Positions 41,371 through 57,481 of a stretch of 64,000 nucleotides of DNA are shown piece by piece. The position numbers and the translations under genes are program-made. Source of the DNA: a bacterium MS4 (GTDB taxonomy: Bacteria; Bacillota; Clostridia; Oscillospirales; Acutalibacteraceae); contig CCFG01000008.1 of assembly GCA_000752215.1 (NCBI GenBank), positions 327,091 through 391,090 on the forward strand. The letters run 5' to 3'. The stretch's first letter is position 1. Each line of letters opens with the position of its first letter. The notes beneath the pieces were generated by a model. The model was not told the origin of the DNA. It saw only the letters and a program-made list of their open reading frames with translations, and ran no database searches.

Positions 41371-41472
41371 TGCAGCAATTCCATTTCAGTTTGTGAGATA
41401 AAACACGTTTCTTCCCCGTCAAAGGCGGGGGAGGAACGCAATCTTGTTGCAGAATCAACTGGAAATGCTGTA
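41371..41472. repeat. 102 bp near-palindromic dispersed repeat, copy B
   Basis: Same length as copy A (22702-22803). Ends TGCAGCAATTCCA and TGGAAATGCTGTA. The left arm of the central stem has three C-to-T changes against copy A, all of which keep G-U pairs in a plus-strand RNA. It starts 6 bp after the iadA stop, between iadA and the M42 peptidase gene. Confidence 0.8.
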
Positions 41473-41506
41473 TTATCATTTTTATAGGAAGAAAAGAGGA
41501 TTTATT

Positions 41507-42642: not shown

Positions 42643-44049
42643 ATGACGGATCAGAAAACAATAGAACAGTATTTTGAGGCGCATCGGGAAGAGATGCTTC
42701 GCGATATGAGTACGCTGATTCGAATTCCGAGCGAAAAAGGGGAGCCCAAAGAGGGAATGCCTTTTGGGGAGTATCCGGCAAAGGCGCTTGCCGCAGCCGT
42801 GAAAATTGCGAAAGACATGGGATTTTCAGTAAAAAATGTTGATAACTATGCGGCGGCTGTCGATTTAAATGACCTTCCAAGACAGCTTGATATTCTGGCG
42901 CACCTGGATGTTGTTCCCGCAGGAAACGGCTGGACGGTGACGCAGCCGTTTGAGCCGCTTGTAAAAGACGGCAGATTATACGGCAGAGGTTCCGCGGACG
43001 ACAAAGGCCCGGCAATCGCTGCGCTGTATGCATTAAAAGCGGTTCGTGACCTGAATGTTCCGCTGAAGAAGAACGCCCGTCTGGTTCTCGGCACCGATGA
43101 GGAATGCGGCAGCGCGGACATTACCTATTATTATGAACAGGAACCGGAAGCACCCATGATTTTTTCGCCGGATGCCGCATTCCCTGTGGTTAATATTGAA
43201 AAAGGACGTTACAGCATCTGGATGAAGGCCGGTTGGAAAGAAGACCTTGCGTTGCCGCGCATCCTTTCCGTTCACGGCGGCGTGAAGAGCAATGTGGTTC
43301 CTGACACTGCCGAGGCTGTGGTGGAAGGGCTTTCTGCGCAGGAGCTTTCCGCCTGCACCGCCGCGGCTGCCGTCAGAACCGGCATTTCGTTTGAATGGAA
43401 GGAGAATAACGGAAAGATTGTCGTGGAAGCACATGGAGCCTGTGCGCATGCTTCTTCGCCGGGAGACGGAAATAACGCCATTACCGGGCTCATCGATTTA
43501 TTAGTCGGAATTCCATTTGCAAAATCGGAAGGATTTGAAAAGCTTTGCGCCGTAAATCAGCTTTTTCCGCATGGTGACTGGCTTGGAAAAGCTCCCGGAG
43601 TAGCCATGGAAGATGAGATTTCCGGCCCTCTGACGATGAGTCTGAACTTGTTTGAGTATGAACTTACGGGACTGAAAGGCTATTTCGACGGCCGTACTCC
43701 GGTCTGCGCCACTAATGAAAATTTGAAAGATATCTTTTGTGCGAAAGCAAGGGCTCAAGGCTTGACTCCGGACGATAAGGGCGTTTCGCCGGCTCACCAT
43801 GTCCCAAAGGATACGCCTTTTATTCAGACGCTGCTGAAGTGCTACGAGCAGTATTCGGGCAGAAAGGGAGAATGCATGGCGATTGGCGGGGGAACTTACG
43901 CACATCGCCTGAAAAACGGCGTCGGATTTGGGTGCTCCATGCCGGAAACGGATAACCGTATGCATGGCGCGGACGAATATGCAGTCATTGAGGAACTGCT
44001 TATGGGAGCAAAAATTTTCACACAGGCAATCATTGACCTTTGTTCCTGA
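42643..44049 (+). CDS. pepV: M20-family dipeptidase PepV
   Basis: This is a zinc-dependent cytoplasmic dipeptidase. The M20 signature residues are in LDILAHLDVVPAG, GRGSADDKGP and GTDEECGSADITYY, with metal-binding Asp in FSPDAAFPV and the C-terminal MPETDNRMHGADEY. Its 468 residues fit PepV rather than shorter M20 enzymes. ATG at 42643 follows GGGGGCC. It ends the iadA operon, and a terminator-like repeat follows about 100 bp downstream. Confidence 0.9.
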   Translation: MTDQKTIEQYFEAHREEMLRDMSTLIRIPSEKGEPKEGMPFGEYPAKALAAAVKIAKDMGFSVKNVDNYAAAVDLNDLPRQLDILAHLDVVPAGNGWTVTQPFEPLVKDGRLYGRGSADDKGPAIAALYALKAVRDLNVPLKKNARLVLGTDEECGSADITYYYEQEPEAPMIFSPDAAFPVVNIEKGRYSIWMKAGWKEDLALPRILSVHGGVKSNVVPDTAEAVVEGLSAQELSACTAAAAVRTGISFEWKENNGKIVVEAHGACAHASSPGDGNNAITGLIDLLVGIPFAKSEGFEKLCAVNQLFPHGDWLGKAPGVAMEDEISGPLTMSLNLFEYELTGLKGYFDGRTPVCATNENLKDIFCAKARAQGLTPDDKGVSPAHHVPKDTPFIQTLLKCYEQYSGRKGECMAIGGGTYAHRLKNGVGFGCSMPETDNRMHGADEYAVIEELLMGAKIFTQAIIDLCS

Positions 44050-44329: not shown

Positions 44330-45211
44330 TTAACACATTTTTTGGGCCTGAAATTCAAATTCCGATTGAGGAGTATATTTATTCTTTTGGATATTAATCC
44401 CTATATCAATACTGGTCCTTCCAAAATAAACACTTGGCGACACGCCGAGCTCTCTTTTAAAAAGACGGCTGAAATAATGAATGCTGGTAAAGCCCAGTTC
44501 TTCGGAAACCTGCGTGATCGTTTTATCACCGGACATAATCAGGGAGATTGCTTTTTCCATTTTCTTTTTATTGATATACTTTTGAGGAGTATATCCAACA
44601 CATTCCTTAAAATATGTGGAAAAATAGTTTTTGTTGTAATTACATATTTGTGCAAGATCGGATATGGCAATATCCTTATCCAGATTCTTATCAATGTAAT
44701 CAAGGACTTCCCGCAAATATTTCTTGGGGTAAAAATTGACGTTTGAGTTGCCGGAAACTTCATCCGGCTGGATCATGAACAAACCATGCTGTTTTCTTCT
44801 CAAAATATGGAAGATGATTTCAAGCATCTGTGCATTGATGATATGTTCATAAAAGTCCCTCTTCTGAAGAGCCTCATAAAAAAAGGACTTCAGCAGGGTG
44901 TCTTCGTAATCAGTGACCCCGTTAATACAATAGCCGATATTTTCCAAAAGGGAGGTTAAATGGTCGTCACAGAGGAATTTTATATCAATCCCGATAAAAC
45001 CGTCGATGCTGTAAACGGCGTGGATAACCCTGGGAGGAACCATAATCAGCGCTCTCTCCTTCACGTCAAACTGATTGTAATCCACTTCAATCATGGCGTG
45101 TCCGCTTAAAGCGTAGATGTAATGGAAATATTCGTGTTCATGACGTTCAATATATGTTTTGGCAAGCTTTTTCTCTTTAACTATACGGAACACGGAAATA
45201 TTATAATCCAA
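44330..45211 (-). CDS. AraC-family transcriptional regulator with cupin sensor domain, 293 aa
   Basis: This regulator has an N-terminal cupin-like sensing domain (about 10-100, with RHEHEYFHYIYALSGHAMIEV) and two C-terminal AraC helix-turn-helix units (about 165-265, with ISDLAQICNYNKNYFSTYFK and ITQVSEELGFTSIHYFSRLF). The start is TTG at 45211, with AGGTGA about seven bases upstream. It is divergent from the ten-gene operon beginning at 45591 and is its likely activator. The ligand is unknown. Confidence 0.87.
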   Translation of the reverse strand: MDYNISVFRIVKEKKLAKTYIERHEHEYFHYIYALSGHAMIEVDYNQFDVKERALIMVPPRVIHAVYSIDGFIGIDIKFLCDDHLTSLLENIGYCINGVTDYEDTLLKSFFYEALQKRDFYEHIINAQMLEIIFHILRRKQHGLFMIQPDEVSGNSNVNFYPKKYLREVLDYIDKNLDKDIAISDLAQICNYNKNYFSTYFKECVGYTPQKYINKKKMEKAISLIMSGDKTITQVSEELGFTSIHYFSRLFKRELGVSPSVYFGRTSIDIGINIQKNKYTPQSEFEFQAQKMC

Positions 45212-45590: not shown

Positions 45591-46748
45591 ATGGATTATT
45601 TTCTTGCCAACGGGATACTGCTGGAGCCCTTCGGGAACTCCGGCGAACATGGGAATCTGCTGATACGCAACGGGCATATCGAAATTGTCAGTGACGGGAC
45701 CCCGCCTCCTTCTGCAGAATGGATCGACTGCTCGGATTGCATGATAACTTCCGGCCTGATTGATACACATTTTCACGCCAACCAGTTTGCGGATTCTCTG
45801 GGAGCAAACGCCGATGTGGTTTGTATACCAAATGGCGTTACGACAGCGATTGACGCGGGTTCCTGCGGAGTATCCAATATCGGTGGGCTGTTACGTTTCA
45901 ATATCCCACGTTATACTACCGATGTCAGGGCGCTTGTCAATGTTGTGTCCAGCGGGCAGCTGTACGGTACGCCGTACGAAGAGACGGATGATCCGGAATA
46001 TTTTGAAGTTTCGGAGATATGCCGGCTGTTTCAGGAATATCCGGATGAATTAAAGGGAATCAAAATCCGTTACCATGCCAACTGTACAAAGGGATTTGGT
46101 TTAAGGCCCCTGCAGAAAACAGTTGAAATTGCCAGCCGCGTGGAGGATATGGGACTCAAATGCCCGGTTGTAGTACATCTGGGCCAACTGGAAGAGCCTC
46201 TTACGCTTCAGGATGTTCTGGAAACCCTTCGCCCCGGCGATGTGGCTGCCCATGTGTTCCAGAATAGCGGAGAGACATTGCTGAGCAGGGAACATCGTGT
46301 TCAGCGATGCTTCTTTGAGGCAAAGGAACGTGGAATCCAGTTCGATTTGGCGCATGGGCGATTCAATTTTACCTTTGAAAACATCGCACAGGCGTTAAAG
46401 GAGGATTTCTGCCCGGACATGCTGGGCTCGGATGTCGGTGCCGGGAATTGCTATATACGTCCGGCGTTTTCCCTTATGTCGACTATGACAATGATGTATG
46501 CGCTCGGTATGCCGCTGGAGAAAATAATCCCCGCGGTTACCGCTACGCCGAAAGAGGTTTATGACCTGGGAACGGCGGGAAAAGGACTGAAAGAAGAACT
46601 CTCGGCAGATTTATCCGTGTTCCGGCTGGTCAAAGGGAAGATAACCTTTGTTGACCGCATGAAAGAGAAGCTGACGGCCAAAGAATGCTTTATGCCGATG
46701 ATGACAATCAAAAACGGGAAGGTAATATACCGTCAGAGCATTTTTTAA
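45591..46748 (+). CDS. Amidohydrolase/deacetylase family metalloenzyme, 385 aa
   Basis: This is an amidohydrolase-superfamily enzyme related to the dihydroorotase-like deacetylases. It has HxH in LIDTHFHANQ, a possible bridging Lys in KGIKIRYHANC, His in VVHLGQLEEP and AAHVFQN, and Asp in MLGSDVGAGN, the metal set of a binuclear site. ATG at 45591 has GGGAG eight bases upstream; an in-frame ATG five codons earlier overlaps that site. It is the first gene of the AraC-linked operon and probably opens or deacylates the imported compound. The exact substrate is not shown. Confidence 0.82.
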   Translation: MDYFLANGILLEPFGNSGEHGNLLIRNGHIEIVSDGTPPPSAEWIDCSDCMITSGLIDTHFHANQFADSLGANADVVCIPNGVTTAIDAGSCGVSNIGGLLRFNIPRYTTDVRALVNVVSSGQLYGTPYEETDDPEYFEVSEICRLFQEYPDELKGIKIRYHANCTKGFGLRPLQKTVEIASRVEDMGLKCPVVVHLGQLEEPLTLQDVLETLRPGDVAAHVFQNSGETLLSREHRVQRCFFEAKERGIQFDLAHGRFNFTFENIAQALKEDFCPDMLGSDVGAGNCYIRPAFSLMSTMTMMYALGMPLEKIIPAVTATPKEVYDLGTAGKGLKEELSADLSVFRLVKGKITFVDRMKEKLTAKECFMPMMTIKNGKVIYRQSIF

Positions 46749-46882
46749 AAGATTACTGCCCATGATACGGCAATCAAATATTAAAACACATGGGAAGGTG
46801 AAAATGTAAATGAGGTGATACGGGGATTGTTTGATCGGCAATATTGTGCATTCAGAAAGAGAAAGATTTAGGAGGAGAATTT

Positions 46883-48220
46883 ATGGAAACAGTCATCGCG
46901 ATTGTCCTGTTGGCAACGTATATCGCTTTTGCCGTTTACGCTGCACGCGGCGGTAACCTTATGCTGGGCTTTTTTGTTATGGCGGTAATCTGGGCCGGAC
47001 TGGGCGCTGCCGACGGCCTTACGACGTGGATAGCCACGTCGGAGCAGACCGGCGCCGGCATGGTTGACATCAACACCGGAATATTCAGTAACGGTCCTAC
47101 CGGATGGGGTGGAACAGCGGTTATTGTTATGTTCGGTTCCTGGTTTGGCCGTATTCTTGTGGAAACCAATATCGCAAGGTCGATCATCAGCTTTGCCGTT
47201 GAAATGGGTGGAGAGCGCAAAGCCTTAACGACCATTCTGATTTCCTTTGTTACCAGCATTATTTTTGCTTCCTGCTACGGCCCCGGCACCGTTGTTGCCA
47301 TCGGCGTTATCGTATTCCCGATTTTGCTTTCCATCGGCGTTCCCAAAACCACCGCCACCCTCTCTTATCTGTTCAGTATAGGGGCGGGGCTGTACATCAA
47401 TACCGGCAGAGGGAAACAGATCGATATCTATATCCCGTTCGACTATGCCAACTCGGTGGACTGGAAGATGTTCAGTTTTATCGCCTATGGTTTGCAGATG
47501 CTTCTTGTGGTTTTGCTGGTTATCTGGGGGACCCGCGGATTAAAACAGCAGAAAAAGCACGCGTGGGCGGTGTCCGAAAATAGCGGCGGGGATAGCGGAA
47601 AGCGTGTCGGCATATTGGCAATGCTCACGCCGATCATTCCGGTTGTACTTACGATATTCTTTCAATTCTCAGCGATTACATCCATTCTCGTCGCGGTCAT
47701 CTGGGCCTTGCTATTCACCGGGAACATGAAAAAATGGAATGAAATGGGAACGATGCTGCAAAAAACCTTCCGGGATGGCGTCACCGATATCGCTTTGGTC
47801 CTGTCCTTCCTGTTCTTCCTGCAAATGTTCATGAAGAGCGCGAAAATCTGCGCGAAAATTTTTGCCAATTTCCTGTCGCCGGTTATTCCCCAGAATCTGC
47901 TGATTATCTTCCTCATTTTCGGTATCTTCGGATTCCTTGCTCTCTTCAGAGGACCGCTCACCCTGTGGGGCTGCGGTACGGCCATTCTGGCACTGCTCCA
48001 GTCGATCGGTGGAATCTTCACTCCAAAGGTGCTTTTCCCGATGTTCACGATTCCCGCGACAACAGTCAACGAATCCTTCTGCCCGACACAGTCCTGGAAC
48101 GTCTGGGCCATCGGCTATACGAAAACCGATATGAAGGAATACTTCAGGGCGGGGCTGGTACCGATCTTAATACTGAATCTTGTTTTGGAAATCATAGCTT
48201 TCTTTATCTTCGCAGCTTAG
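46883..48220 (+). CDS. Ion-transporter-superfamily permease (GntP/dicarboxylate-like), 445 aa
   Basis: This is a multi-pass membrane protein with about eleven or twelve hydrophobic helices. The two-halves layout, the polar re-entrant stretches SCYGPGTVVAIG and FCPTQSWNVWAIG, and FRGPLTLWGCGTAIL are what one expects of gluconate- or dicarboxylate-type symporters. GGAGGAG precedes ATG at 46883. As the only transporter in the operon it should import the substrate of the amidohydrolase and HyuA-like proteins, probably an organic anion. The family placement is tentative. Confidence 0.6.
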   Translation: METVIAIVLLATYIAFAVYAARGGNLMLGFFVMAVIWAGLGAADGLTTWIATSEQTGAGMVDINTGIFSNGPTGWGGTAVIVMFGSWFGRILVETNIARSIISFAVEMGGERKALTTILISFVTSIIFASCYGPGTVVAIGVIVFPILLSIGVPKTTATLSYLFSIGAGLYINTGRGKQIDIYIPFDYANSVDWKMFSFIAYGLQMLLVVLLVIWGTRGLKQQKKHAWAVSENSGGDSGKRVGILAMLTPIIPVVLTIFFQFSAITSILVAVIWALLFTGNMKKWNEMGTMLQKTFRDGVTDIALVLSFLFFLQMFMKSAKICAKIFANFLSPVIPQNLLIIFLIFGIFGFLALFRGPLTLWGCGTAILALLQSIGGIFTPKVLFPMFTIPATTVNESFCPTQSWNVWAIGYTKTDMKEYFRAGLVPILILNLVLEIIAFFIFAA

Positions 48221-48398
48221 AAACAAGCAGGAAAAATGCCGGACGTATTTTTGTACGGATATTTGGCTGACTGCTGTTCTAAACGCCAAAAATATTCAGG
48301 AATTTCAGTTGGAAACAGGTTTGCCGCATTTTATTCTGCAGTCAATGGGCGTTTCCTATGGAATGCGGCAGTCCGGTTTCCCTTCAGGAGGTAGTTTC

Positions 48399-50534
48399 AT
48401 GGGCAGAAAGGTCAGAGTTGGCATCGATGTTGGGGGCACTCATACGAAAGCCGTTGCACTGGATAACGAAAAGTATGAAATCGTTGGCACCAGCATTGTT
48501 AAAACAACGCACAGCCATAAGATGGGCGTTGCCGCCGGTGTTATTGAGTGTTTTCAGAAGTGCATTGAGGAAAACGACTTCAGTGCCGATGATGTCGTAT
48601 TCATTGCTCATTCGACAACACAGGCAACCAACGCGCTACTGGAAGGCGATGTGGCCAAGGTGGGCGTGATTGGGATCGGTAAGGGAGGCCTGGAAGGATG
48701 GCTTTCTAAAAAACAGACTACGCTCGAAGATATCCCGTTGGGAACGGGTAGAGTGATTAAAGTAGTAAACAGCTACGTGAAAGAAAAACAGCTTACGGAG
48801 GACTACGTCCAGAACCATATCGACCGCTTAAAAGGACAGGGGGCCGATGTGCTGGTGGCCTCTGAGGCTTTTGGCGTTGATTCGATGAAAAAAGAAGAAC
48901 TGGTGAGGGAGGTCGCCGAAAAAAATGATGTGATGGTATCGGCCGCTTCTGCGATTTCCAAGCTGTACGGACTGAAACGCCGTACCCGCACGGCGGCAAT
49001 CAACGCTTCTATTCTTCCCACCATGATGAATACGGCTTATTCCACGGAAATGGCGGTGCGCGAAGCCGGCATTAAGGTCCCTCTCATGGTCATGCGCGGA
49101 GACGGCGGGGTTATGGATATCAGCGAAATGAAAAAGCGTCCGGTTCTGACGATGCTGTCCGGGCCGGCTGCCAGTATTGTGGGAGCGCTGATGTATCTGC
49201 GCGCTTCCAATGGGATTTACTTTGAGGTGGGGGGCACCTCAACCAATATCGGCGTTATCAAAAATGGGCGCCCGGCGGTAGAATATTCCACAGTCGGTGG
49301 TCATTCGACTTATGTAAGTTCCCTGGATGTCATCGTTTTGGGAGTTGCGGGCGGTTCCATGGTACGCGCATCAGGGAATAAGCTGATTGATGTTGGACCC
49401 CGCAGTGCCCATATCGGCGGTTTGGATTATGCGGTGTACACGCCGACGGCAGAAATCAAAGAACCCCAGTTGGAATTTTTCTCCCCGAAGGAGGGCGATC
49501 CGGAGGATTATGTCCGAATCAAACTGGCCTCCGGAAAACGTGTGGCAATTACTAATTCCTGTGCGGCGAACGTCCTCGGATATGTATCGGAAAGTGATTA
49601 CAGCTATGGAATAATCGAGTCGGCGAGATTGTGCATCAAGCCCCTTGCCGATTATCTGGGAATCAGTATTGAGCAGTGTGCCGAACAGATTTTACAGAAG
49701 GCCTTTGAAAAAATAGAGCCCGTTGTAAACGGGTTTGTGGAAAAATATCATTTGGAACGCGATCAGGTGTCTTTGGTCGGCTGCGGCGGCGGCGCCAGCG
49801 CCCTTCTGCCGTTTACGGCTAAGAAAATGGAACTGAATTATTCTATTCCAAAAAATGCGGAAGTGATTTCCTCCATCGGCGTGGCACTGGCTATGATCCG
49901 CGATGTTGTGGAACGCGTCATTCCGAGCCCCACGCAGGAGGATATCGCTGCAATCAAAAAGGAAGCCAAAAATCTTGCGGTCCGGAATGGCGCAGTCCCG
50001 GATTCCGTCGAGGTACAGATAGAAATCGATTCCCAGACCAACAGAGTCACCGCGATTGCTCTTGGTTCCTCAGAAGTGAAAACCACCGATTTGCTGAAGG
50101 TGTGCGATGAAAAGGAAGCGGGACAGATTGCAGCCAAATCAATGAATGTTTCCGAAGAGTCCGTGAAATGCGCTTTAAAAAATGACCTGTTCTTTATCTT
50201 TACATCAGAAGTGAAGGGAAAGGACTCGGTCAGAATACTGGATAAAAAGGGATTTGTCAAAGTGCAGCGAAAAGATGCGAAAGTGATTTCATTCGCTGTT
50301 AAGGATTGGGAAAAATCGGTCGAGCAGCTTTGGAAGGAAATGGTTTCCTTTAAAGCGGAAATGGAACACGGTCCCGACATGTACTTATGCATCGGAGGAA
50401 AGGTGCTCGATTTCGAAAGCGCCTTGGACTTGAATCAACTGATGATCCTGATGCAGAGTGAATTCCTGGAAGCGGAACCCGATGATATCGTGTTCCTTGT
50501 TGCCGCAAGATATGATATGGGCTATGAATCTTAA
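48399..50534 (+). CDS. Solitary HyuA-like hydantoinase/oxoprolinase family protein, 711 aa
   Basis: This is an actin-fold ATPase of the hydantoinase/oxoprolinase A family, members of which open lactam or hydantoin rings using ATP. Seen are the N-terminal phosphate motif GIDVGGTHTKAVALD, STTQATNALLEGD, a second phosphate motif FEVGGTSTNIGV, and VGCGGGASALLPF. About 170 residues after the usual domain form an unassigned C-terminal extension. ATG at 48399 follows AGGAGG. No HyuB partner is encoded anywhere near. Its 3' end overlaps the next gene by about 20 nt. Confidence 0.85.
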   Translation: MGRKVRVGIDVGGTHTKAVALDNEKYEIVGTSIVKTTHSHKMGVAAGVIECFQKCIEENDFSADDVVFIAHSTTQATNALLEGDVAKVGVIGIGKGGLEGWLSKKQTTLEDIPLGTGRVIKVVNSYVKEKQLTEDYVQNHIDRLKGQGADVLVASEAFGVDSMKKEELVREVAEKNDVMVSAASAISKLYGLKRRTRTAAINASILPTMMNTAYSTEMAVREAGIKVPLMVMRGDGGVMDISEMKKRPVLTMLSGPAASIVGALMYLRASNGIYFEVGGTSTNIGVIKNGRPAVEYSTVGGHSTYVSSLDVIVLGVAGGSMVRASGNKLIDVGPRSAHIGGLDYAVYTPTAEIKEPQLEFFSPKEGDPEDYVRIKLASGKRVAITNSCAANVLGYVSESDYSYGIIESARLCIKPLADYLGISIEQCAEQILQKAFEKIEPVVNGFVEKYHLERDQVSLVGCGGGASALLPFTAKKMELNYSIPKNAEVISSIGVALAMIRDVVERVIPSPTQEDIAAIKKEAKNLAVRNGAVPDSVEVQIEIDSQTNRVTAIALGSSEVKTTDLLKVCDEKEAGQIAAKSMNVSEESVKCALKNDLFFIFTSEVKGKDSVRILDKKGFVKVQRKDAKVISFAVKDWEKSVEQLWKEMVSFKAEMEHGPDMYLCIGGKVLDFESALDLNQLMILMQSEFLEAEPDDIVFLVAARYDMGYES

Positions 50535-51174
50535 CGATTATGTGACGCGGCTTGAAACAGTCGACGACAGAAGCTGGTTTTTGCATTGCTGTCATCAATA
50601 CTGCCCGGAAAATCGGAGAGAAAACCGCGATTTTTTGCCGGAGATCGAAACGGCTGCACAAAACGGACGTTCTCTTGCCCGCGCGAAGCGTCCTTCTTTG
50701 AACGGATCGCTGAAGCAGGCGATGGAACGGGAGGGCCTGACCGTCCAATTTGAAAGTCCTGATCTGGTTTTCAGTCCGGAGTATTTTGAGCTTGCCTTTT
50801 ATCTGGAGCCGGCAACGGTTTGCGTCAATACAGCACTGATAGAATCGATCCTTCGTTCTGCGGAACAGGAAGGGTTTTCATTGCCCGGAATTGATTGGGC
50901 GGATGTTTTCCTTGCGCATGAATATGCCCACTTTCTGGCGGTGACCGGACAAACGCTCCAGTGCTATCAGCAGATGGTACGTATTTCAAAAGGACTGAGC
51001 GGCAAGGAAAAAAGCAGGCTGCTGCCCTGCCTCGACGAAATATTTGCCATGTCGTTTGCGAAAGAGCTTCTGAAAATGGATATCTCGCCGTGGCTTTTTA
51101 ATTTTCTTGCCCTTTGGAAAATCGACAGAGAAAAGGCTCTTGCCTTGTTTCAAAATATCATTTGCGCAGAATAA
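50512..51174 (+). CDS. Putative HExxH zinc metalloprotein, about 220 aa, unrecognised
   Basis: No named family was recognised with confidence. The sequence has a clear HExxH zinc motif, HEYAH at residues 136-140, in VFLAHEYAHFLAVTG. About 35 residues later comes DEIFAMSFA, whose Glu could be the third ligand, as in gluzincins; the layout resembles predicted proteases of the DUF2268 kind. There is no signal peptide or membrane segment. ATG at 50512 is chosen, with ATG at 50524 as alternative; neither has a ribosome site, and both overlap the hyuA-like stop, so coupled translation is likely. Confidence 0.7.
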   Translation: MIWAMNLNDYVTRLETVDDRSWFLHCCHQYCPENRRENRDFLPEIETAAQNGRSLARAKRPSLNGSLKQAMEREGLTVQFESPDLVFSPEYFELAFYLEPATVCVNTALIESILRSAEQEGFSLPGIDWADVFLAHEYAHFLAVTGQTLQCYQQMVRISKGLSGKEKSRLLPCLDEIFAMSFAKELLKMDISPWLFNFLALWKIDREKALALFQNIICAE

Positions 51175-51211
51175 ATGAACATGGATCGATACGGTTTTGG
51201 GAGGATCATTT

Positions 51212-51757
51212 ATGGAATGGATTTTCTTTACAGGCGTTGGGATAACGGCAGCCGCGACGGTTTGCTTTATCATCAGCGGCAGACAAAAGGGACCCAAAGC
51301 GGCAGTCTGCTTTCTGAAAGAAAGCAGAAGCATCCTTTTGCTGATCGCCCTTCTTTGGGGCAGCGCTGCGCTTATGTTCGGTACGTATCGGACAGCAGAG
51401 GCAAGTATGGAGACAAAGGCGCAGCTTTATTACCTGCTTTTCATTTTGGCCGACATTCTGCTTGGCGCTTTTTCCCTTCTGTATATGGTCAACAGGCTTG
51501 CGGCAGTAACGGAAGAAGGCGTTACCGAGATCAACGCTTTCGGAGATAAAAAGTTCCTCTCATGGAATGAAATCCAGGAAATCCGCCCTCCGGACCTGAT
51601 ACATTCCTCCTATGTTTTTGTAGGACGCGACGGCACGGTGATCCCCATTTCGGGAGCGAAAGGAGAGAAGGAGAGATTTGTCCATGAATCCGCAAAAAGG
51701 CTGCCGGAAAATCTGAAAAGGACTCTGATGGACAGTTTGGGAAAAAAGAAAAATTAA
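51212..51757 (+). CDS. Membrane protein with PH-like C-terminal domain, 181 aa, function unknown
   Basis: Three hydrophobic helices lie at about residues 3-22, 42-60 and 72-95. They are followed by a cytoplasmic beta-rich domain with VTEEGVTEINAFGDKKFLSW and YVFVGRDGTVIPI, resembling the small bacterial PH-like modules. ATG at 51212 has GGGAGGATC upstream. It lies between the HExxH gene and the cupin gene in the same operon. It might be a membrane partner or substrate of the HExxH protein (speculative). Confidence 0.65.
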   Translation: MEWIFFTGVGITAAATVCFIISGRQKGPKAAVCFLKESRSILLLIALLWGSAALMFGTYRTAEASMETKAQLYYLLFILADILLGAFSLLYMVNRLAAVTEEGVTEINAFGDKKFLSWNEIQEIRPPDLIHSSYVFVGRDGTVIPISGAKGEKERFVHESAKRLPENLKRTLMDSLGKKKN

Positions 51758-51779
51758 GACAGTAAGGAGATCTTTAGGT

Positions 51780-52175
51780 ATGGATTATTTAAAAAGAGAA
51801 CAAATCAAACAGGATCATTTGCCCGGGCGCGTCATACAAAACGCAGTCGGTTCCGACCAAAAGGGTTATCCCGTTCCCAGCACAAAAATGACGATCTGTT
51901 TTGCCCACTATTCCGCGGAAAGCGGGCCGATGGAACCGCATAATCACGCGGAGGAAACGGTCGTTGTCCTTTCCGCCAGGGATAGTTTTGTACAATGGGG
52001 GGATTCCAAAGGAAACCTTCCTCATAAACAGATGCTGAATTCCGGGGACGTCATGCATTTTGCGGAGCTGGAGTGGCATGTGTTCGGGTATAACGAAGGC
52101 GGAAGCCTGGATGCTCTCTGCATTTACGGCCAGGTTGACAATATTCGGCCGGAAGAGATTGATAATAAGAAATAA
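51780..52175 (+). CDS. Cupin-domain protein, 131 aa
   Basis: This is a small single-domain cupin with the metal-type motif PHNHAEETVVVL and the second motif GDVMHFAELEWHVFG. Such proteins include small isomerases, lyases and dioxygenases as well as sensors. AAGGAGATC precedes ATG at 51780. It comes 22 nt after the membrane-protein gene and 24 nt before the DapA-family gene, so it is part of the operon; an isomerase or epimerase step is plausible but unproven. Confidence 0.8.
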   Translation: MDYLKREQIKQDHLPGRVIQNAVGSDQKGYPVPSTKMTICFAHYSAESGPMEPHNHAEETVVVLSARDSFVQWGDSKGNLPHKQMLNSGDVMHFAELEWHVFGYNEGGSLDALCIYGQVDNIRPEEIDNKK

Positions 52176-52199
52176 GAAATACATACTGGAGGAATTAAA

Positions 52200-53099
52200 A
52201 TGGCAAAAAAACTGAAGGGAGTCATCCCGCCGATCATCACTCCTGTGGATGAAAAGGAAAAAGTGGACGAGGCGGCATTGCGGAAGCTGGTGAATCATTG
52301 TATCGACAATCGGATTCACGGGATCTTTGTGGCCGGCTCGAACGGCGAGTGTCTTGCCCTTACCCAGAGGGAACGCGACCATGCGATCAAAATCGTACTG
52401 GACGAGGCCGCCGACCGCGTCCCGGTCATGGCCGGCGTTATGGATTCCAGTACGCAGCGCGTGATCGACAATATCAAGGCGTTCGAGGACATGGGCGGGG
52501 AATACGCCGTAATCACGCCGGTGTTTTATGCGCGTCATGCCACCCAGCAGGAAACCGTCCGTCTGTTTGAGGATGTGGCAAGGAATACGCAGTGTAAGCT
52601 GCTGATTTATAATATTCCCCCCTTTACCGGGCAGCTTTTGAAAGCGGAGACTATTTTTGAGATAGCGAAAATCGATAAAGTGGTTGGGTATAAGGATACT
52701 TCCGGAAACTATCCCGATTTCATTAAATGCCTTCGCCATTTTCAGGGTACCGATTTTCATCTGTTCCAGGGAGCAACGAATCTGGCGATTCCAAGCCTGT
52801 TAATGGGTGCGGACGGCTATATTCCCTCTCTGGCGCCTCTGTTCCCAAAACCGTATGTCGAAATGTTTGAGGCGGCTCAGCGGAAGGATTATGACGCGGT
52901 CATGATGTGGGGGAAAATTGTGGACGAAACCTGCAAAATCTATCCGATGGCAAGGAGCCAGACTGCGTCCACAAAGTATGCCCTGAGCAAGCTGGGATTC
53001 CTTGATAAACGGGTGATCCGGCCGACCGAACCGATTACGCCGGAAGAAGAACGGAGCATCGATCAAAAGATTGAGGAATTAAAAGAATACCTTGTTTAA
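52200..53099 (+). CDS. DapA/NanA-family (beta/alpha)8 lyase, 299 aa
   Basis: This is a class I aldolase/dehydratase of the dihydrodipicolinate synthase family. Schiff-base Lys165 in VVGYKDTSG and Tyr137 in LLIYNIPP are present, with the GSNGE phosphate/carboxylate loop near residue 48. GGAGG precedes ATG at 52200. In a catabolic operon it more likely cleaves or dehydrates a 2-keto-3-deoxy sugar acid or 4-hydroxy-2-oxo acid than makes dihydrodipicolinate. Substrate identity cannot be read from the sequence. Confidence 0.88.
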   Translation: MAKKLKGVIPPIITPVDEKEKVDEAALRKLVNHCIDNRIHGIFVAGSNGECLALTQRERDHAIKIVLDEAADRVPVMAGVMDSSTQRVIDNIKAFEDMGGEYAVITPVFYARHATQQETVRLFEDVARNTQCKLLIYNIPPFTGQLLKAETIFEIAKIDKVVGYKDTSGNYPDFIKCLRHFQGTDFHLFQGATNLAIPSLLMGADGYIPSLAPLFPKPYVEMFEAAQRKDYDAVMMWGKIVDETCKIYPMARSQTASTKYALSKLGFLDKRVIRPTEPITPEEERSIDQKIEELKEYLV

Positions 53100-53181
53100 A
53101 ACAAACGATAAGAGGGTATGCCGTCTGAAACGGGATGTGCCGTAACAGCATACCGATAGATGTGGTAACCCCTTCTTTGGA

Positions 53182-53207
53182 CAGGGCCGCCTTATGCGGC
53201 GGCTCTG
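53182..53207 (+). other. Intercistronic hairpin between the lyase and dehydrogenase genes
   Basis: CAGGGCCGCC / GGCGGCTCTG with a TTATGC loop, in a 169 bp spacer. No T-run follows, so it is not an obvious terminator; mRNA processing or stability is possible. Confidence 0.5.
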
Positions 53208-53268
53208 CTCCTTCATAAACGATTCCGGACAGAGAGTATTTTATTTTGGCGACAGGAGGAAAGAAAGA

Positions 53269-54240
53269 ATGCCGACTATTATGCTTTCCCATGCTTTATA
53301 TGACGACGGGATGCAGATTCTGCGGGAGCACGCCGATGTGATTGTCGCGGATACTTCCGATTTTTGGAAGGTATTGACCGATTTGCAGAAATGTGACGGC
53401 CTGATCATCCGCGTAGGGAAAATAGACAGGGAGTTAATGGAACGATGCCCAAAGCTCAGGGTGATTTCCCGCCCGGGTGTTGGTGTTGACAATGTAGACA
53501 TGAAAGCCGCAACAGAGCTTGGAATACCGGTCGTGATTGCGCCGGGCACCAATGCGCGTTCCGTTGCGGAACATGCGATCGCATTGACCTATACCATAAC
53601 GAAAAACGTTGTGGAAAGCTGTGCCCAAACGGCGAAAGGGAATTTTGGAATACGCAATCAGTATAGGGCCATTGAGCTGGAGCATCACAAGGTCGGTGTA
53701 ATCGGCTTTGGAAATATCGGACGCATTACGGCGGGGCTGTTTTCCCGCAACGATATGGAGGTCCATGTTTTTGACCCCTATATAAATCAAGAGACTGTGG
53801 AAAAGTGCGGGTATGTCTATCACGGTCAATTAGAGGAATGCCTGTCGGCATGCAGCGTAGTTTCCCTGCACATGCCCTCTACTCCTGAAACGCGCGGTAT
53901 GTTCGGGAAGAAGCAGTTTGATGCCATGCAGGACGGGTGCTTTTTTGTCAATTGTGCCAGAGGGGATATCGTAAACGAGAACGCGCTGTACGAGGCTTTA
54001 AACAACGGCAAGGTGGCAGGCGCTGCCGTGGATGTTCTGGAAAGTGAGCCGATGGACCCCGCCAGCAAACTGTTTACCTCTAGGAATTTTATCGCAACGC
54101 CCCATATGGCGGCACTTACGCGGGAAAGTTCCGCCCGCACTTCCAGTCTGACGGCACAGGGAACTCTTGCGGTACTGAGAGGAGAAAAATGGGATAAGGT
54201 GGCGAATCCGGAGGTTTATCATCATACCCGCTGGAAATAA
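53269..54240 (+). CDS. D-isomer 2-hydroxyacid dehydrogenase family (SerA-like), 323 aa
   Basis: This is an NAD-dependent dehydrogenase interconverting 2-hydroxy and 2-oxo acids. It has the catalytic Arg in VISRPGVGVDNVD, the dinucleotide loop GVIGFGNIGR, ARGDIVNENAL and the catalytic His in TPHMAAL. The protein has no ACT domain, so it is not a regulated biosynthetic SerA. AGGAGG precedes ATG at 53269. It lies upstream of a DUF1537 kinase, as in four-carbon acid-sugar pathways where a dehydrogenase acts before that kinase. Confidence 0.88.
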   Translation: MPTIMLSHALYDDGMQILREHADVIVADTSDFWKVLTDLQKCDGLIIRVGKIDRELMERCPKLRVISRPGVGVDNVDMKAATELGIPVVIAPGTNARSVAEHAIALTYTITKNVVESCAQTAKGNFGIRNQYRAIELEHHKVGVIGFGNIGRITAGLFSRNDMEVHVFDPYINQETVEKCGYVYHGQLEECLSACSVVSLHMPSTPETRGMFGKKQFDAMQDGCFFVNCARGDIVNENALYEALNNGKVAGAAVDVLESEPMDPASKLFTSRNFIATPHMAALTRESSARTSSLTAQGTLAVLRGEKWDKVANPEVYHHTRWK

Positions 54241-54280
54241 TGCGGAGCGATACCCTTTAAAGTCAAAAGGCGGTGAAATT

Positions 54281-55720
54281 GTGCAGGAAAATATCTTAAG
54301 TATTGATACGCTGCTTTCTTATGTACCGTTATCGGAAAGCCTTCAGGAGACGGTCCATGAGAATCTGGAACAGAAGAGAAAGAAAATGAACCGGAAAATC
54401 GTCGTTTTAGATGACGACCCGACTGGGACACAGACGGTTCACGATATCAATGTGTATACGGACTGGGAAGAAGAAAGCATCCGCGCGGGATTTCAGGAAG
54501 ATTCCAATATGTTTTTTATCCTTACAAATTCCCGCAGCTTTTCTTCACAGCATACGGAGGAAGTACACAGGGCGATCGGTGAACGGATAGCCAAAATCTC
54601 CAAAGAATATAAACGTGATTACATTCTGGTCAGCCGGGGGGATTCCACCCTCCGTGGTCATTATCCTTTGGAAACCGCGACGCTGAAAAAAGCGATTGAA
54701 CGGGTATCGGCGAAACGGTTCGATGGGGAAATACTCTTTCCTTTTTTTGTGGAAGGCGGAAGATACACCATTGGCAATATCCATTATGCGCAAGATGAAA
54801 ATAAGCTTGTGCCTGTCGGGAAAACCGAGTTTTCAAAGGATAAAACCTTTGGGTACCGTTCCTCGGATCTGACAGAATGGTGCGAGGAAAAAACGAAAGG
54901 ACAATATCGTGCCGATACGGTCACGGCTATCACGCTGGAGGAACTGCGGAGCTGTAATATCAAAAAAATTACGGAAAAGCTAATGGGAATTCGCAATTAT
55001 AATAAAGTCATTGTCAATGCGATCGATTACGAGGATATTGCGGTATTTTTAAACGCCTATTTCAACGCGCTGGAAGCCGGAAAGGAGTTCCTTTTCCGGA
55101 GCGCCGCATCTCTTGTAAAAGCGCTGGGCGGAATCCGGAGCCGTCCGCTGCTGGACTGCAGAAAGGAGCTTGCCAATACCAGCCAAAACGGCGGGATTAT
55201 TATCGTAGGTTCACACGTGCAAAAAACGACAGATCAGCTGGAATACCTTAAAAACGGAAATCTGCCGGTGGAATTTATTCAGTATGACCAGCACCGGGTT
55301 TTAGAAAAGAACGGACTGCAGGAAGAGACGCGGAAGGTTGCCGCCGAGGCGGAAAGACTTGTCAGAGCGGGCAGGATCGTCGCTGTTTATACAAGGCGCG
55401 ACCGGCTGGATCTGGATACGGACGACTCTGAAAAGCAGCTTGAAGTATCCACGAAGATTTCGGATGCCATCGTCCGGGTGATTGCCGGTCTGGATGTTCA
55501 GCCTCGCTTCCTGATTGCGAAGGGCGGAATCACATCCAGCGACATTGCCACAAAGGCCCTGCATATCTGGAGGGCGAAAATAATGGGTCAAATCGAACCG
55601 GGAATCCCTGCTTGGCTCGCCGGGCCGGAAAGTAAGTTCCCGGGTATGGCTTATATTATTTTTCCCGGTAATGTCGGAAATGAGAAAAGCCTGTTTCGGA
55701 TTGTATCGAAATTAATGTAA
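54281..55720 (+). CDS. Four-carbon acid sugar kinase family protein (DUF1537/OtnK), 479 aa
   Basis: This is an ATP-dependent kinase of the DUF1537 family, whose studied members phosphorylate 3-oxotetronates, erythronate/threonate and related acid sugars. The N-terminal substrate domain has VVLDDDPTGTQTVHDI and the SRGDSTLRGHYP motif. The C-terminal nucleotide domain has IIVGSHVQKTT, FLIAKGGITSSDIATKAL and FPGNVG. The start is GTG at 54281 behind AGGCGGTGA. A polar 40-residue N-terminal stretch precedes the usual family start. Its product would go to the class II aldolase encoded 25 nt downstream. Confidence 0.88.
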   Translation: MQENILSIDTLLSYVPLSESLQETVHENLEQKRKKMNRKIVVLDDDPTGTQTVHDINVYTDWEEESIRAGFQEDSNMFFILTNSRSFSSQHTEEVHRAIGERIAKISKEYKRDYILVSRGDSTLRGHYPLETATLKKAIERVSAKRFDGEILFPFFVEGGRYTIGNIHYAQDENKLVPVGKTEFSKDKTFGYRSSDLTEWCEEKTKGQYRADTVTAITLEELRSCNIKKITEKLMGIRNYNKVIVNAIDYEDIAVFLNAYFNALEAGKEFLFRSAASLVKALGGIRSRPLLDCRKELANTSQNGGIIIVGSHVQKTTDQLEYLKNGNLPVEFIQYDQHRVLEKNGLQEETRKVAAEAERLVRAGRIVAVYTRRDRLDLDTDDSEKQLEVSTKISDAIVRVIAGLDVQPRFLIAKGGITSSDIATKALHIWRAKIMGQIEPGIPAWLAGPESKFPGMAYIIFPGNVGNEKSLFRIVSKLM

Positions 55721-55745
55721 TTGAATTTTGGATCGGGTGTAAAAA

Positions 55746-56564
55746 ATGCTTATAAATTTAGAGTCGGCCTTCCAAAGCAGCCCTTGCCTTGTTTCTTTTA
55801 ACTTTTATAATATAGAAAGTCTGACAGCCATCCTGAATGCGGCAAAAAAGAGCGAAAAACCGGTGATTGCGGCATTCGGAGAGGGATATTTGTCACATAT
55901 GCCTCTCAAACTGACAGCCGGACTCGCCGGTATCTTTGACAGGATATATGATATGCCGTTTGTCCTCCATCTTGACCATGCCCGCAGCAAAGAGGTAGTC
56001 TTTCAGGCGATTACGCTGGGATTTTCCTCTGTGATGTATGACGGTTCCCATTTACCGTTTGAACAAAATATACAGAACACAAAAGAAATCGTGAATTATG
56101 CAAAAAAATACGGCGTGACGGTTGAAGGCGAGCTTGGGTGTATGAATCCGGAAGACGGAACCGGTCCCCGAATTCAAAGCGATTATTATACAAATCCCGG
56201 TCAGGCGGCCCTGTTCGCTGCCAAAACCGGGGTTGATGCTCTGGCTGTTTCCGTCGGGAACGCGCACGGTGTTTATTCGGGCCAGCCGCACATTGATTTT
56301 GACCGGATTCTTGAAATCAGGGGTGCGGCGCATCTGCCGTTGGTATTGCACGGATGTTCTGGAATCCCATTCGACGATATTCGAAAAGCGGTTCGATGTG
56401 GAATACGGAAAATAAACGTCAATACGGATATGGCGGTGGAAGCGGCAAAATCGGTAAAAACGTTTCTGGACACGCAGGGCGAAACCGCCAGAATGGATAA
56501 GGCAATGGAATATGCCCAAGCCGCAATGGAACGGGTTGCGGAAAAATATCTGAATTGTTTTTAA
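55746..56564 (+). CDS. Class II ketose-bisphosphate aldolase family protein (FbaA/GatY-like), 272 aa
   Basis: This is a zinc-dependent TIM-barrel aldolase. Zinc-binding histidines lie in FVLHLDHARS, VSVGNAHGVYSG and VLHGCSGIP, and the phosphate site in INVNTDMA. It is a short GatY/KbaY-like form. The start ATG at 55746 has only a weak site (GGGTGTAAAA). It is the last gene of the operon and would split the phosphorylated product of the DUF1537 kinase to dihydroxyacetone phosphate plus a small aldehyde or acid (inference). A perfect terminator follows within 10 bp. Confidence 0.88.
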   Translation: MLINLESAFQSSPCLVSFNFYNIESLTAILNAAKKSEKPVIAAFGEGYLSHMPLKLTAGLAGIFDRIYDMPFVLHLDHARSKEVVFQAITLGFSSVMYDGSHLPFEQNIQNTKEIVNYAKKYGVTVEGELGCMNPEDGTGPRIQSDYYTNPGQAALFAAKTGVDALAVSVGNAHGVYSGQPHIDFDRILEIRGAAHLPLVLHGCSGIPFDDIRKAVRCGIRKINVNTDMAVEAAKSVKTFLDTQGETARMDKAMEYAQAAMERVAEKYLNCF

Positions 56565-56572
56565 AGATTGGA

Positions 56573-56612
56573 AATAAAACCGTATCTGCGTTTGAACAGA
56601 TACGGTTTTATT
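56573..56612. terminator. Bidirectional intrinsic terminator
   Basis: Perfect 16 bp stem AATAAAACCGTATCTG / CAGATACGGTTTTATT with an 8 nt loop and T-rich flanks on both strands. It separates the convergent aldolase and ribF-like genes and touches the ribF-like stop codon. Confidence 0.9.
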
Positions 56613-57481
56613 TATTGCTTTACATTGTTCTTAACATATTCCAGATCCTTTTCCACCTGGTTTTTGACTTGTTCCAGATTGTCGAATTTCTGAACGTCCC
56701 GGATAAATCCCCGAACTTCCAACTGAATTTTCTTTCCGTAAATATCTTTTGCAAAGTTGAGCAGATAGGTTTCAATGGTCACGTACCGGTAACTGTCGAC
56801 GGACGGCCTGAGGCCGATATTTGTCAGGCCCTTGTAGCTTTCCCCTTCAATGATGGACAGGGTAGCGTATACGCCGTGCTTTGGAATCAGTTTGTTTTCA
56901 CCGACGCCAAGGTTAGCCGTAGGCATTCCTACCGTTCGTCCAAGCGCCTTACCATGCATTACTTCCCCCATCATCAAGTAAGGGTGCCCCAGCATTTCGG
57001 TCGCTTTTTCCAGCGAACCCTGCGTAATTTCAGTTGCAATACGCTGGGAGGTCACCGCTTCTCCGCCGACATTCACCGTTTCGATTTCCTCAATGGAAAA
57101 GCCGTATTTTTTGGAGTGTTCACGCAGTGCGGGGAGATGAGGATCATTTTTACCGGTTACAATGACTTTGGCCCCCAGCTTGTCCGCTAAAACTTCCTTT
57201 ATAAATTGATCCAAAGAAAAGCTCTGCTTGTCAATTTCATAGGAAATCAAAACCTCCGGCCCGTTTTCACTGAGCAGTTCCCGCTTTTCTTCGCTTGTGG
57301 TAAGAATTTGTCCTTCGTCGCTATGACCGTCAAAGCAGAGAACCACGGAAGTCAGCCCGCTTTTTGATATTTCCAGCAGTCTGTTGATGACTGCGCGGTG
57401 ACCGGTATGTACCCCTTCAAAGCTGCCGAAAGCGACGCAGGCGCTGTCGATTTGGAAATCAGCCTTGTCAATATATATCAC
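56612..57481 (-). CDS. RibF-like riboflavin kinase with divergent FAD-synthetase domain, 289 aa
   Basis: This resembles bifunctional riboflavin kinase/FMN adenylyltransferase. The C-terminal kinase domain is well preserved (GKALGRTVGMPTANL, HGVYA, NIGLRPS, catalytic Glu in IETYLLNF). The N-terminal nucleotidyltransferase keeps GSFEGVHTGH but lacks the usual GxNFRFG-type motif (reads VTGKNDPHLP), so FAD synthesis may be lost or altered. The start is GTG at 57481 with GAGAGGA six bases upstream; ATG at 57511 has no site. It follows an amino acid permease gene rather than the usual truB/rpsO context, so it is probably a specialised paralog. Both points need biochemical proof. Confidence 0.8.
   Translation of the reverse strand: MIYIDKADFQIDSACVAFGSFEGVHTGHRAVINRLLEISKSGLTSVVLCFDGHSDEGQILTTSEEKRELLSENGPEVLISYEIDKQSFSLDQFIKEVLADKLGAKVIVTGKNDPHLPALREHSKKYGFSIEEIETVNVGGEAVTSQRIATEITQGSLEKATEMLGHPYLMMGEVMHGKALGRTVGMPTANLGVGENKLIPKHGVYATLSIIEGESYKGLTNIGLRPSVDSYRYVTIETYLLNFAKDIYGKKIQLEVRGFIRDVQKFDNLEQVKNQVEKDLEYVKNNVKQ

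What the first reader, a model, noticed from the sequence alone, without database searches (positions are those of the whole stretch)
45591..56564. Ten-gene AraC-linked operon encoding an apparently undescribed catabolic route
In order: amidohydrolase, ion-transporter-type permease, HyuA-like ATPase, HExxH protein, PH-like membrane protein, cupin, DapA-family lyase, hydroxyacid dehydrogenase, DUF1537 kinase, class II aldolase. The last three resemble four-carbon acid-sugar degradation, while the first part suggests opening an amide, lactam or hydantoin. I know of no pathway joining these. A plausible reading is hydrolysis of an amide-linked or cyclic acyl sugar acid, then oxidation, phosphorylation and cleavage to dihydroxyacetone phosphate.
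Basis: partly seen in the sequence, partly recalled or inferred. Interest (0 to 1): 0.7.

Follow-up and report, generated by a model that had tools for sequence, protein, structure and literature searches.

The report
Sugar-acid operon with conserved uptake cassette
The ten genes look like one bacterial operon for using an unidentified sugar acid, in which a kinase, aldolases and a dehydrogenase are added to an uncharacterised importer, ATPase and metalloprotein gene set that recurs near sugar-acid genes in other microbes; the substrate is still unknown.

Summary
In detail: ten same-strand genes, a divergent AraC gene and a terminator-like hairpin after the last gene.

(1) The 'amide/lactam-opening' half is mainly a recurring cassette: DcuC-like permease, stand-alone HyuA-like ATPase, HExxH protein. 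In the 80 best of 504 loci encoding HyuA relatives, the permease is adjacent in 78 and the HExxH gene in 72. In 40 of 73 loci a hexuronate, ketogluconate or KDG-type gene lies within 7 kb. Two haloarchaeal plasmids carry the triad. The window's genome has no HyuB match, and HyuA motif acids are replaced, so classical hydantoinase chemistry is unlikely.

(2) The kinase scores far below the D-threonate and 3-oxo-tetronate kinase cut-offs. Two relatives tested sit beside dehydrogenases passing a tartronate-semialdehyde reductase model; one also has the same kind of aldolase. I favour phosphorylation, cleavage to DHAP plus a C2/C3 oxo-acid, then reduction. A tetronate route is not excluded: some relatives, and a second DapA–dehydrogenase pair in this genome, sit with D-threonate-type genes.

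None of 132 fetched loci joins cassette and kinase; the window does. Substrate and HyuA/HExxH function remain unknown.

The parts
44330..45211 (-). AraC-family regulator with cupin-type N-terminal domain, divergent from the operon
   Evidence: HTH_AraC 2e-20, Cupin_2 4e-6; a 28% relative lies directly after the cassette in L081
45212..45590 (.). 379 bp divergent control region
   Evidence: no Rfam match in the window
45591..46748 (+). g1 amidohydrolase-superfamily enzyme of the PRK12394/PRK09237/EF_0837 group; HxH, Lys, His, His, Asp positions present
   Evidence: NCBIfam 268-276 bits, below cut-offs 442 and 371; PDB alignments; motifs
46883..48220 (+). g2 DcuC-like (ion-transporter type) permease, first gene of the cassette
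   Evidence: relatives in 79 of 80 HyuA loci by tblastn with this protein, adjacent in 78 of 80 by profile
48399..50534 (+). g3 stand-alone HyuA-like ASKHA ATPase
   Evidence: Hydantoinase_A 3e-60; model pLDDT 78.7, Foldseek hits N-methylhydantoinase, acetone and acetophenone carboxylase, caprolactamase
50524..51174 (+). g4 HExxH protein, overlapping g3 by 11 bp; weakly IrrE/PprI-like zincin
   Evidence: HExxH in 65 of 65 cluster members; model pLDDT 87.5; PprI 8slm prob 0.99, E 0.047
   Evidence: weak STM3941_fam; profile hit in 11 of 80 HyuA loci
51780..52175 (+). g6 small cupin-like protein
   Evidence: no family hit; 34% relative in G493 in a sugar-acid-like cluster
52200..53099 (+). g7 DapA/NAL-family lyase (Schiff-base Lys and Tyr positions present)
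   Evidence: DHDPS 1e-46; TIGR00674 dapA 150.5 bits, cut-off 206.15; residues
53269..54240 (+). g8 SerA-like D-2-hydroxyacid dehydrogenase
   Evidence: paired again with a g7 paralogue in L010
54281..55720 (+). g9 DUF1537-family acid-sugar kinase of an unassigned group
   Evidence: PF07005 and PF17042; DtnK model 42.3 bits (cut-off 450), OtnK 25.4 (cut-off 350)
55746..56564 (+). g10 class II FBA/GatY-type aldolase, Zn-ligand histidines aligned with GatY
   Evidence: 42-44% to aldolases beside kinase relatives in L025, L027, L028
56572..56613 (+). terminator-like hairpin
   Evidence: 17-pair stem

Best explanation
An AraC-controlled operon for a sugar acid, probably a five- or six-carbon keto-aldonate or an acylated form of it. 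The permease, HyuA-like ATPase, HExxH protein and membrane protein (g2-g5) form a pre-existing cassette that imports a sugar acid and handles it in an ATP-dependent way (shown: the cassette recurs; inferred: import; unknown: the HyuA and HExxH reactions). The amidohydrolase removes an acyl group or opens a ring (inferred). The DUF1537-type kinase phosphorylates the far end of the acid (family inference), the class II aldolase cleaves it to DHAP and a C2 or C3 oxo-acid, and the D-2-hydroxyacid dehydrogenase reduces that oxo-acid (inferred from neighbours of the closest kinase and aldolase relatives). The DapA-like lyase with the dehydrogenase handles a second branch giving pyruvate or a related oxo-acid (weak inference). 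The cupin is an isomerase or binding protein (guess).
For: Ten compact same-strand genes and an end hairpin. Cassette recurs: permease adjacent in 78 and HExxH in 72 of 80 HyuA loci; profiles hit 0 of 49 control loci. Distance matrices of HyuA and permease correlate at r 0.92 (n 70) against 0.52 for HyuA and the pfkB kinase (n 24). In 40 of 73 loci at least one of pfkB kinase, KDPG aldolase, HPS-like, SIS, YiaK, UxuA, UxuB or YhcH genes lies within 7 kb. In R. gnavus a hydantoinase and a 'peptidase' gene rise with uxuA, yiaK and a YhcH gene, log2FC 4.1-4.4 (PMC11581127, passages). Kinase and FBA-type aldolase share a locus in 5 of the other 43 kinase loci. GarR-like genes lie in 13 of 44 kinase loci; the two tested pass NF008592 (405.4 and 423.6, cut-off 397). 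L033 has a dehydrogenase passing the glyoxylate reductase model (460.1, cut-off 455) and a glycerate kinase.
Against: 33 of 73 cassette loci have none of the listed sugar-acid genes within 7 kb. 38 of 44 kinase loci have no aldolase of g10's cluster; PdxA and DtnK-type genes occur in 7 and 6 of 44, which favours tetronates. g8 is below every reductase cut-off it was scored against (PGDH 275.3/454, glyoxylate reductase 184.9/455). One of the two GarR-like proteins just misses the second model (339.5/340.75). Model names are annotations, not assays. No biochemical or expression data for this operon.
Confidence: 0.45

Rival explanations
1. Four-carbon acid route close to the first reader's: g8 oxidises a D-2-hydroxy tetronate, the cupin isomerises 2-oxo to 3-oxo tetronate, g9 phosphorylates it and g10, an FBA-fold enzyme, decarboxylates it to DHAP.
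For: DUF1537 family. PdxA in 7 and DtnK-type kinase in 6 of 44 kinase loci. In this genome g7/g8 paralogues sit with a DtnK-like kinase (214.8 bits) and a PdxA (357.1, cut-off 290.35), and a same-genus genome has that locus too. DHAP enediol chemistry could serve a decarboxylase (inference).
Against: g9 scores 42.3/450 and 25.4/350 with the C4 kinase models. No PdxA, OtnI-type or AraD-type OtnC gene in the operon. FBA-type decarboxylation is not something I know to be described (recalled).
Confidence: 0.27
2. One reading: HyuA with the HExxH protein and the amidohydrolase opens an amide, lactam or hydantoin-like sugar-acid derivative, the zinc protein replacing HyuB.
For: HyuA fold matches N-methylhydantoinase and caprolactamase. 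The HExxH gene follows HyuA directly and may be zinc-binding. g1 is an amidohydrolase.
Against: No HyuB match in this genome; none in 15 of 18 cassette-bearing genomes searched. HyuA motif residues K17, E276 and N283 replace aspartates seen in the two aligned PDB hydrolases, in 24 of 24 members. Recurring neighbours are sugar-acid genes, not nitrogen genes, as far as looked.
Confidence: 0.15
3. Several independent transcripts that happen to be neighbours: cassette plus amidohydrolase, and a kinase-aldolase unit.
For: Gaps of 134, 178 and 169 bp. Cassette and kinase unit occur separately in all 132 other loci compared.
Against: Same strand over 11 kb, no + strand terminator-like site in the gaps, hairpin only after g10; one divergent regulator.
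Confidence: 0.13

Closest known systems
HyuA/HyuB ATP-dependent hydantoinases, 5-oxoprolinases, caprolactamase, acetone and acetophenone carboxylases
   Same: g3 has the HyuA ASKHA fold and Pfam domains
   Different: no HyuB partner in the genome; motif aspartates replaced; always looked at here beside a permease (78 of 80)
Ruminococcus gnavus FXV78_RS16940-RS16965 operon (PMC11581127, passages only)
   Same: hydantoinase and 'peptidase' genes co-induced with uxuA, yiaK and a YhcH gene
   Different: no kinase, aldolase or DapA; the permease is not named there, and I did not compare its sequences
Four-carbon acid sugar catabolism with DUF1537 kinases (OtnK, DtnK; recalled, original paper not held)
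   Same: DUF1537 kinase; DHAP as the likely end product
   Different: kinase far below both models; FBA-type aldolase; no OtnC, OtnI or PdxA in the operon
myo-Inositol IolC/IolJ kinase-aldolase pair and E. coli YdjI (recalled; YdjI structure 6ofu is the second best PDB hit)
   Same: logic of phosphorylating a keto-acid and cleaving it with a class II aldolase to DHAP and an acid aldehyde
   Different: DUF1537 kinase instead of a pfkB kinase; substrate unknown
GntR-GarR-DUF1537 kinase-class II aldolase-GntP loci (L027, L028)
   Same: kinase about 51-54% and aldolase 42-43% identical to g9 and g10
   Different: GarR-type dehydrogenase and GntP permease instead of g8 and the cassette
IrrE/PprI (M78-like) metalloproteases
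   Same: HExxH and weak fold match
   Different: no Pfam M78 hit in A4 members above chance; E-value 0.047, TM 0.39

Membership tests
HyuAB-type ATP-dependent hydantoinase/oxoprolinase | HyuA ATPase domains | tested here: met
   PF05378 5.6e-20, PF01968 3.1e-60; fold hits
HyuAB-type ATP-dependent hydantoinase/oxoprolinase | HyuB partner | tested here: not met
   PF02538: no match in the window's genome, while the same search rings in 6 of 14 control genomes
HyuAB-type ATP-dependent hydantoinase/oxoprolinase | motif aspartates as in DxGGTFTD and D(I/M)GGTSxD | tested here: not met
   K17, E276, N283 in 24 of 24 members against Asp in the two PDB sequences printed
Permease-HyuA-HExxH cassette (defined here) | the three genes adjacent on one strand | tested here: met
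   window g2-g4; 72 of 80 related loci
C4 acid-sugar kinase (DtnK/OtnK) | score above the NCBIfam equivalog cut-offs | tested here: not met
   42.3/450 and 25.4/350
C4 acid-sugar kinase (DtnK/OtnK) | DUF1537 two-domain architecture | tested here: met
   PF07005 6e-48, PF17042 3e-34
C4 acid-sugar kinase (DtnK/OtnK) | phosphorylates a tetronate | not testable with these tools
   needs an assay
Class II FBA/GatY-type aldolase | family score and Zn-binding histidines | tested here: met
   PF01116 8e-78; TIGR00167 232.5, cut-off 215.6; His positions aligned with GatY
DapA (4-hydroxy-tetrahydrodipicolinate synthase) | score above the dapA equivalog cut-off | tested here: not met
   150.5, cut-off 206.15; Lys165 and Tyr138 positions kept; the Arg that I recall as substrate-binding in DapA is Phe here
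PRK12394/PRK09237/EF_0837 amidohydrolases | score above the NCBIfam cut-offs | tested here: not met
   268/442, 275.8/371, 203.5/432.15; closest group all the same
IrrE/PprI (M78-like) metalloprotease | HExxH motif | tested here: met
   65 of 65 cluster members
IrrE/PprI (M78-like) metalloprotease | M78 fold | tested here: inconclusive
   top Foldseek hit 8slm, prob 0.99 but E 0.047 and TM 0.39
IrrE/PprI (M78-like) metalloprotease | proteolysis of a partner protein | not testable with these tools
   needs an assay

The most novel reading that the evidence does not exclude
The permease, the HyuA-like ATPase and the IrrE-like HExxH protein are one machine: an ASKHA ATPase of the hydantoinase fold that energises or gates a DcuC-type carboxylate permease (as ArsA does for ArsB), with the zinc protein as its regulator or maturation protease; a transport system shared by bacteria and haloarchaea into which different sugar-acid pathways are plugged. 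In favour: the partner enzymes vary while permease and HyuA co-vary (r 0.92) and HyuB is absent. It is not excluded by any result here, but nothing shows direct contact.
Probability: 0.15. Interest if true: 0.85.

Novelty: new variant of a known kind. Interest (0 to 1): 0.5.

Why it matters
The window operon points to a catabolic route without a known substrate. The more general point is that a permease-HyuA-HExxH set, annotated gene by gene as transporter, 'hydantoinase' and 'hypothetical', recurs in at least 72 of the 80 closest loci (of 504 found) and in two haloarchaeal plasmids. If it works as a unit, many 'hydantoinase/oxoprolinase' annotations in such genomes are misleading and a sugar-acid uptake or activation step has been missed. 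The kinase group beside tartronate-semialdehyde-type reductases is likewise a group of DUF1537 kinases whose substrates can be tested directly.

Tried and rejected
Plasmid searches for g7 and g6 found nothing at the thresholds used. A g7 search at E 1e-65 in 398 phylum genomes matched only the window's genome, and at 1e-50 in 148 relatives only the window's genome and G002, so g7's group could not be placed by context beyond that. g1 in 16 cassette genomes gave one genome at E 1e-50 (33% identity). In plasmids g1's best relatives were about 30-33% identical; the one neighbourhood opened held an MFS transporter and no sugar-acid kinase. A phage-collection search for g1 gave only 28-33% hits in the rows listed and was dropped. 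g9 had no PDB sequence match. The cupin had no useful PDB match. Rfam and tRNA searches of the window were empty. Of five HyuA plasmid neighbourhoods examined, Deinococcus (L127) had neither permease nor HExxH, Selenomonas (L122) had a permease but no HExxH, and the Streptomyces record (L123) had a permease after HyuA and only a weak HExxH profile hit overlapping it. In L128 the third gene shows a HELGH motif by eye but the profile missed it. These go against a universal triad. The HExxH and permease profiles were built from the same loci they were counted in; with the window's own proteins alone tblastn finds the permease in 79 and the HExxH protein in 31 of 80. The 80 loci are the best of 504 and include close relatives (for example many Paenibacillus), and L083 is the same contig as L008 by name length and gene order, so they are not independent. 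ORF picking lost HyuA in 7 of 80 loci for the neighbour counts, hence 73.

I considered and rejected reading the HExxH protein as the catabolic hydrolase of the route (only match is a regulatory protease, and it is the least conserved member, median identity 0.32 against 0.66 for HyuA), but this is not proof.
Full report
Anatomy. The ten ORFs lie on the + strand from 45591 to 56564, with gaps of -11 to 178 bp and an 11 bp overlap of g3 and g4. A divergent AraC-family gene ends the upstream side. No + strand terminator-like site falls in the internal gaps and a 17-pair hairpin follows g10 at 56572-56613. This supports, without proving, one operon.

What the proteins are. g2 has no Pfam hit and a weak DcuC match; g4, g5 and g6 have no Pfam hit. 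Subfamily scores matter: g9 reaches 42.3 bits with the D-threonate kinase model (cut-off 450) and 25.4 with the 3-oxo-tetronate kinase model (cut-off 350); g7 is below the DapA cut-off (150.5, 206.15); g8 is below every equivalog cut-off listed; g10 passes TIGR00167, ketose-bisphosphate aldolase (232.5, 215.6), and aligns with GatY and YdjI; g1 is closest to PRK09237 and PRK12394 but below both cut-offs.

The cassette. A scan of one genome per species (84,980 in the collection) with a three-sequence HyuA alignment gave 569 pattern matches, 504 encoding relatives, of which the best 80 were kept. With profiles, a permease lies within 2.5 kb on the HyuA strand in 78 of 80 and the HExxH gene in 72 of 80; of the eight without HExxH, three end within 100 bp of HyuA, and L110 has 1.2 kb of room. 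The g5-type membrane protein is found in 11 of 80. With the window's own proteins alone, tblastn gives 79 of 80 for the permease and 31 of 80 for the HExxH protein. As a control, the three profiles hit none of 49 other fetched loci, 0.76 Mb. Median gap HyuA-HExxH is 6 bp by ORF start (57 loci). Pairwise identities of HyuA and permease correlate at r 0.92 (70 loci), HyuA and HExxH 0.79 (60), HyuA and pfkB-type kinase 0.52 (24), HyuA and GntR 0.79 (28), HyuA and LacI 0.88 (28); relatedness contributes to all of these, and the LacI value shows that a high r is not special to the permease.

Its surroundings. In the 73 loci where HyuA was recovered as an ORF, 40 have at least one of pfkB kinase (21), KDPG aldolase (15), HPS-like (14), SIS/PHI-like (13), YhcH (10), YiaK/Ldh_2 (9), UxuA (6) or UxuB (4) within 7 kb on either strand; GntR (28) and LacI (30) regulators are common (families of representatives). 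Thirty-three of 73 have none of these enzymes. In G112 the cassette is followed by UxuA, UxuB, a KDPG aldolase-sugar kinase fusion by its sequence, and further genes I read as KduI and KduD from sequence without a family search. In Ruminococcus gnavus a paper reports a hydantoinase, a 'peptidase', uxuA, yiaK, a YhcH gene and a hypothetical gene all up by log2FC 4.1-4.4 with agarooligosaccharides, mostly as one operon (PMC11581127; passages only); I did not compare those sequences. HyuA relatives at about 40% occur on eight plasmids; in two of them, both haloarchaeal, the order is 'citrate transporter', HyuA, small HExxH protein. Selenomonas has the transporter but no HExxH gene, and Deinococcus has neither.

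HyuA without HyuB. Hydantoinase_B has no match in the window's genome (genome 98.6% complete) and none in 15 of 18 cassette-bearing genomes. Within the HyuA group K17, E276 and N283 are invariant in the 24 aligned members, where N-methylhydantoinase and caprolactamase have aspartates. The predicted fold (pLDDT 78.7) matches N-methylhydantoinase, the acetone and acetophenone carboxylases and caprolactamase. So the fold is that of HyuA, the classical two-subunit reaction is unlikely, and what the protein does is open.

The HExxH protein. HExxH is present in 65 of 65 cluster members and His132, Glu133, His136 and Glu172 are invariant in 55 aligned. Its model (pLDDT 87.5) has one notable PDB match, the PprI protease of Deinococcus geothermalis (prob 0.99, E 0.047, TM 0.39); no match reached E 0.001. 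It may be a regulatory or maturation protease rather than a catabolic enzyme; this is inference.

The kinase, aldolase and dehydrogenase. g9 relatives were found in 12 of 398 phylum genomes, the window's included, and in 31 of 250 genomes of the family of G591 (the genome of L036, Muricomes intestini in the record title). Among 44 kinase loci, the window's included, clustering gives GarR-like genes in 13, an Asp/Glu-racemase-like gene in 14, GntP-type permeases in 11, a BKACE-like gene in 11, PdxA in 7, DtnK-type second kinase in 6, g10-type aldolase in 6 and g8-type dehydrogenase in 5 (labels of the unscanned clusters are from reading sequence). Two GarR-like proteins were scanned: both pass NF008592 (2-hydroxy-3-oxopropionate reductase; 405.4 and 423.6, cut-off 397), one passes TIGR01505 (343.5) and one just misses it (339.5; cut-off 340.75); both are below the L-threonate dehydrogenase cut-off. 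In L033 the dehydrogenase passes the glyoxylate reductase model (460.1, 455) and a glycerate kinase gene lies between it and the kinase. L034's dehydrogenase just misses (452.5). This is why I favour phosphorylation, cleavage to DHAP and a C2/C3 oxo-acid, and reduction. Against it, PdxA and DtnK neighbours point to four-carbon acids, and only L027 and L028 have GarR-like gene, kinase and g10-type aldolase together.

The second locus. From about 392.3 to 403 kb of the same contig lie a PrpR-type regulator, a DtnK-like kinase (214.8 bits, cut-off 450), an iron alcohol dehydrogenase, a PdxA (357.1, cut-off 290.35), a g7 paralogue (56%), a g8 paralogue (53%) and Tct-like transport genes. A same-genus genome, G002, has the same locus. 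So g7 and g8 are a pair that goes with DUF1537 kinases, in two different settings.

Uniqueness. Among 132 fetched loci compared by tblastn (E 1e-10, half coverage), none other than the window combines the cassette with the kinase. These loci were chosen by one component each, so this is a statement about them, not about all genomes. Ten literature searches gave no paper describing the operon or the cassette as a unit; only listings were seen, plus passages of two papers.

Verdict. An ordinary-looking sugar-acid operon in its general character, new in its combination, and carrying a cassette that is more interesting than the operon. I put 0.45 on the best explanation, 0.27 on the four-carbon rival, 0.15 on amide opening and 0.13 on separate transcripts; the last can hold together with the others. 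Recalled, not from any call: the C4 pathway details, IolC/IolJ, YdjI chemistry, ArsA/ArsB, and the DapA arginine.

Noticed in passing
L010 (G000:C8:390000-409900), about 13 kb after g10: Second acid-sugar locus in the same genome: PrpR-type regulator, DtnK-like kinase, Fe-ADH, PdxA, g7 and g8 paralogues, Tct-like transporter; conserved in same-genus genome G002.
   Followed up: partly
41444-42583 and 42643-44049: Two peptidase-like ORFs just upstream of the AraC gene; relatives of both also lie near the cassette in two Enterococcus loci, L095 and L109. Could be chance.
   Followed up: no
L081:12868-13746: An AraC regulator 28% identical to the window's one lies directly after the HExxH gene of the cassette.
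   Followed up: no
L130 (G493:C1:2028500-2048400): The only g6 relative found in 398 phylum genomes sits beside an Asp/Glu-racemase-like gene, a TRAP-like transporter and transketolase halves; the racemase-like gene also accompanies g9 relatives in 14 of 44 kinase loci.
   Followed up: partly
L121:9684-11672 and L122:4202-5551: FAD-dependent oxidoreductases next to HyuA and permease in a haloarchaeal and a Selenomonas plasmid (FAD_oxidored 6e-103 in L122).
   Followed up: no
L042:7475-8578: A D-2-hydroxyacid dehydrogenase (30% to g8) directly upstream of the cassette permease in a Planctomycetaceae MAG contig.
   Followed up: no
G000:C5:231247-231921: A third DUF1537 kinase gene in the same genome, fetched (L001, L011) but not analysed.
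   Followed up: no
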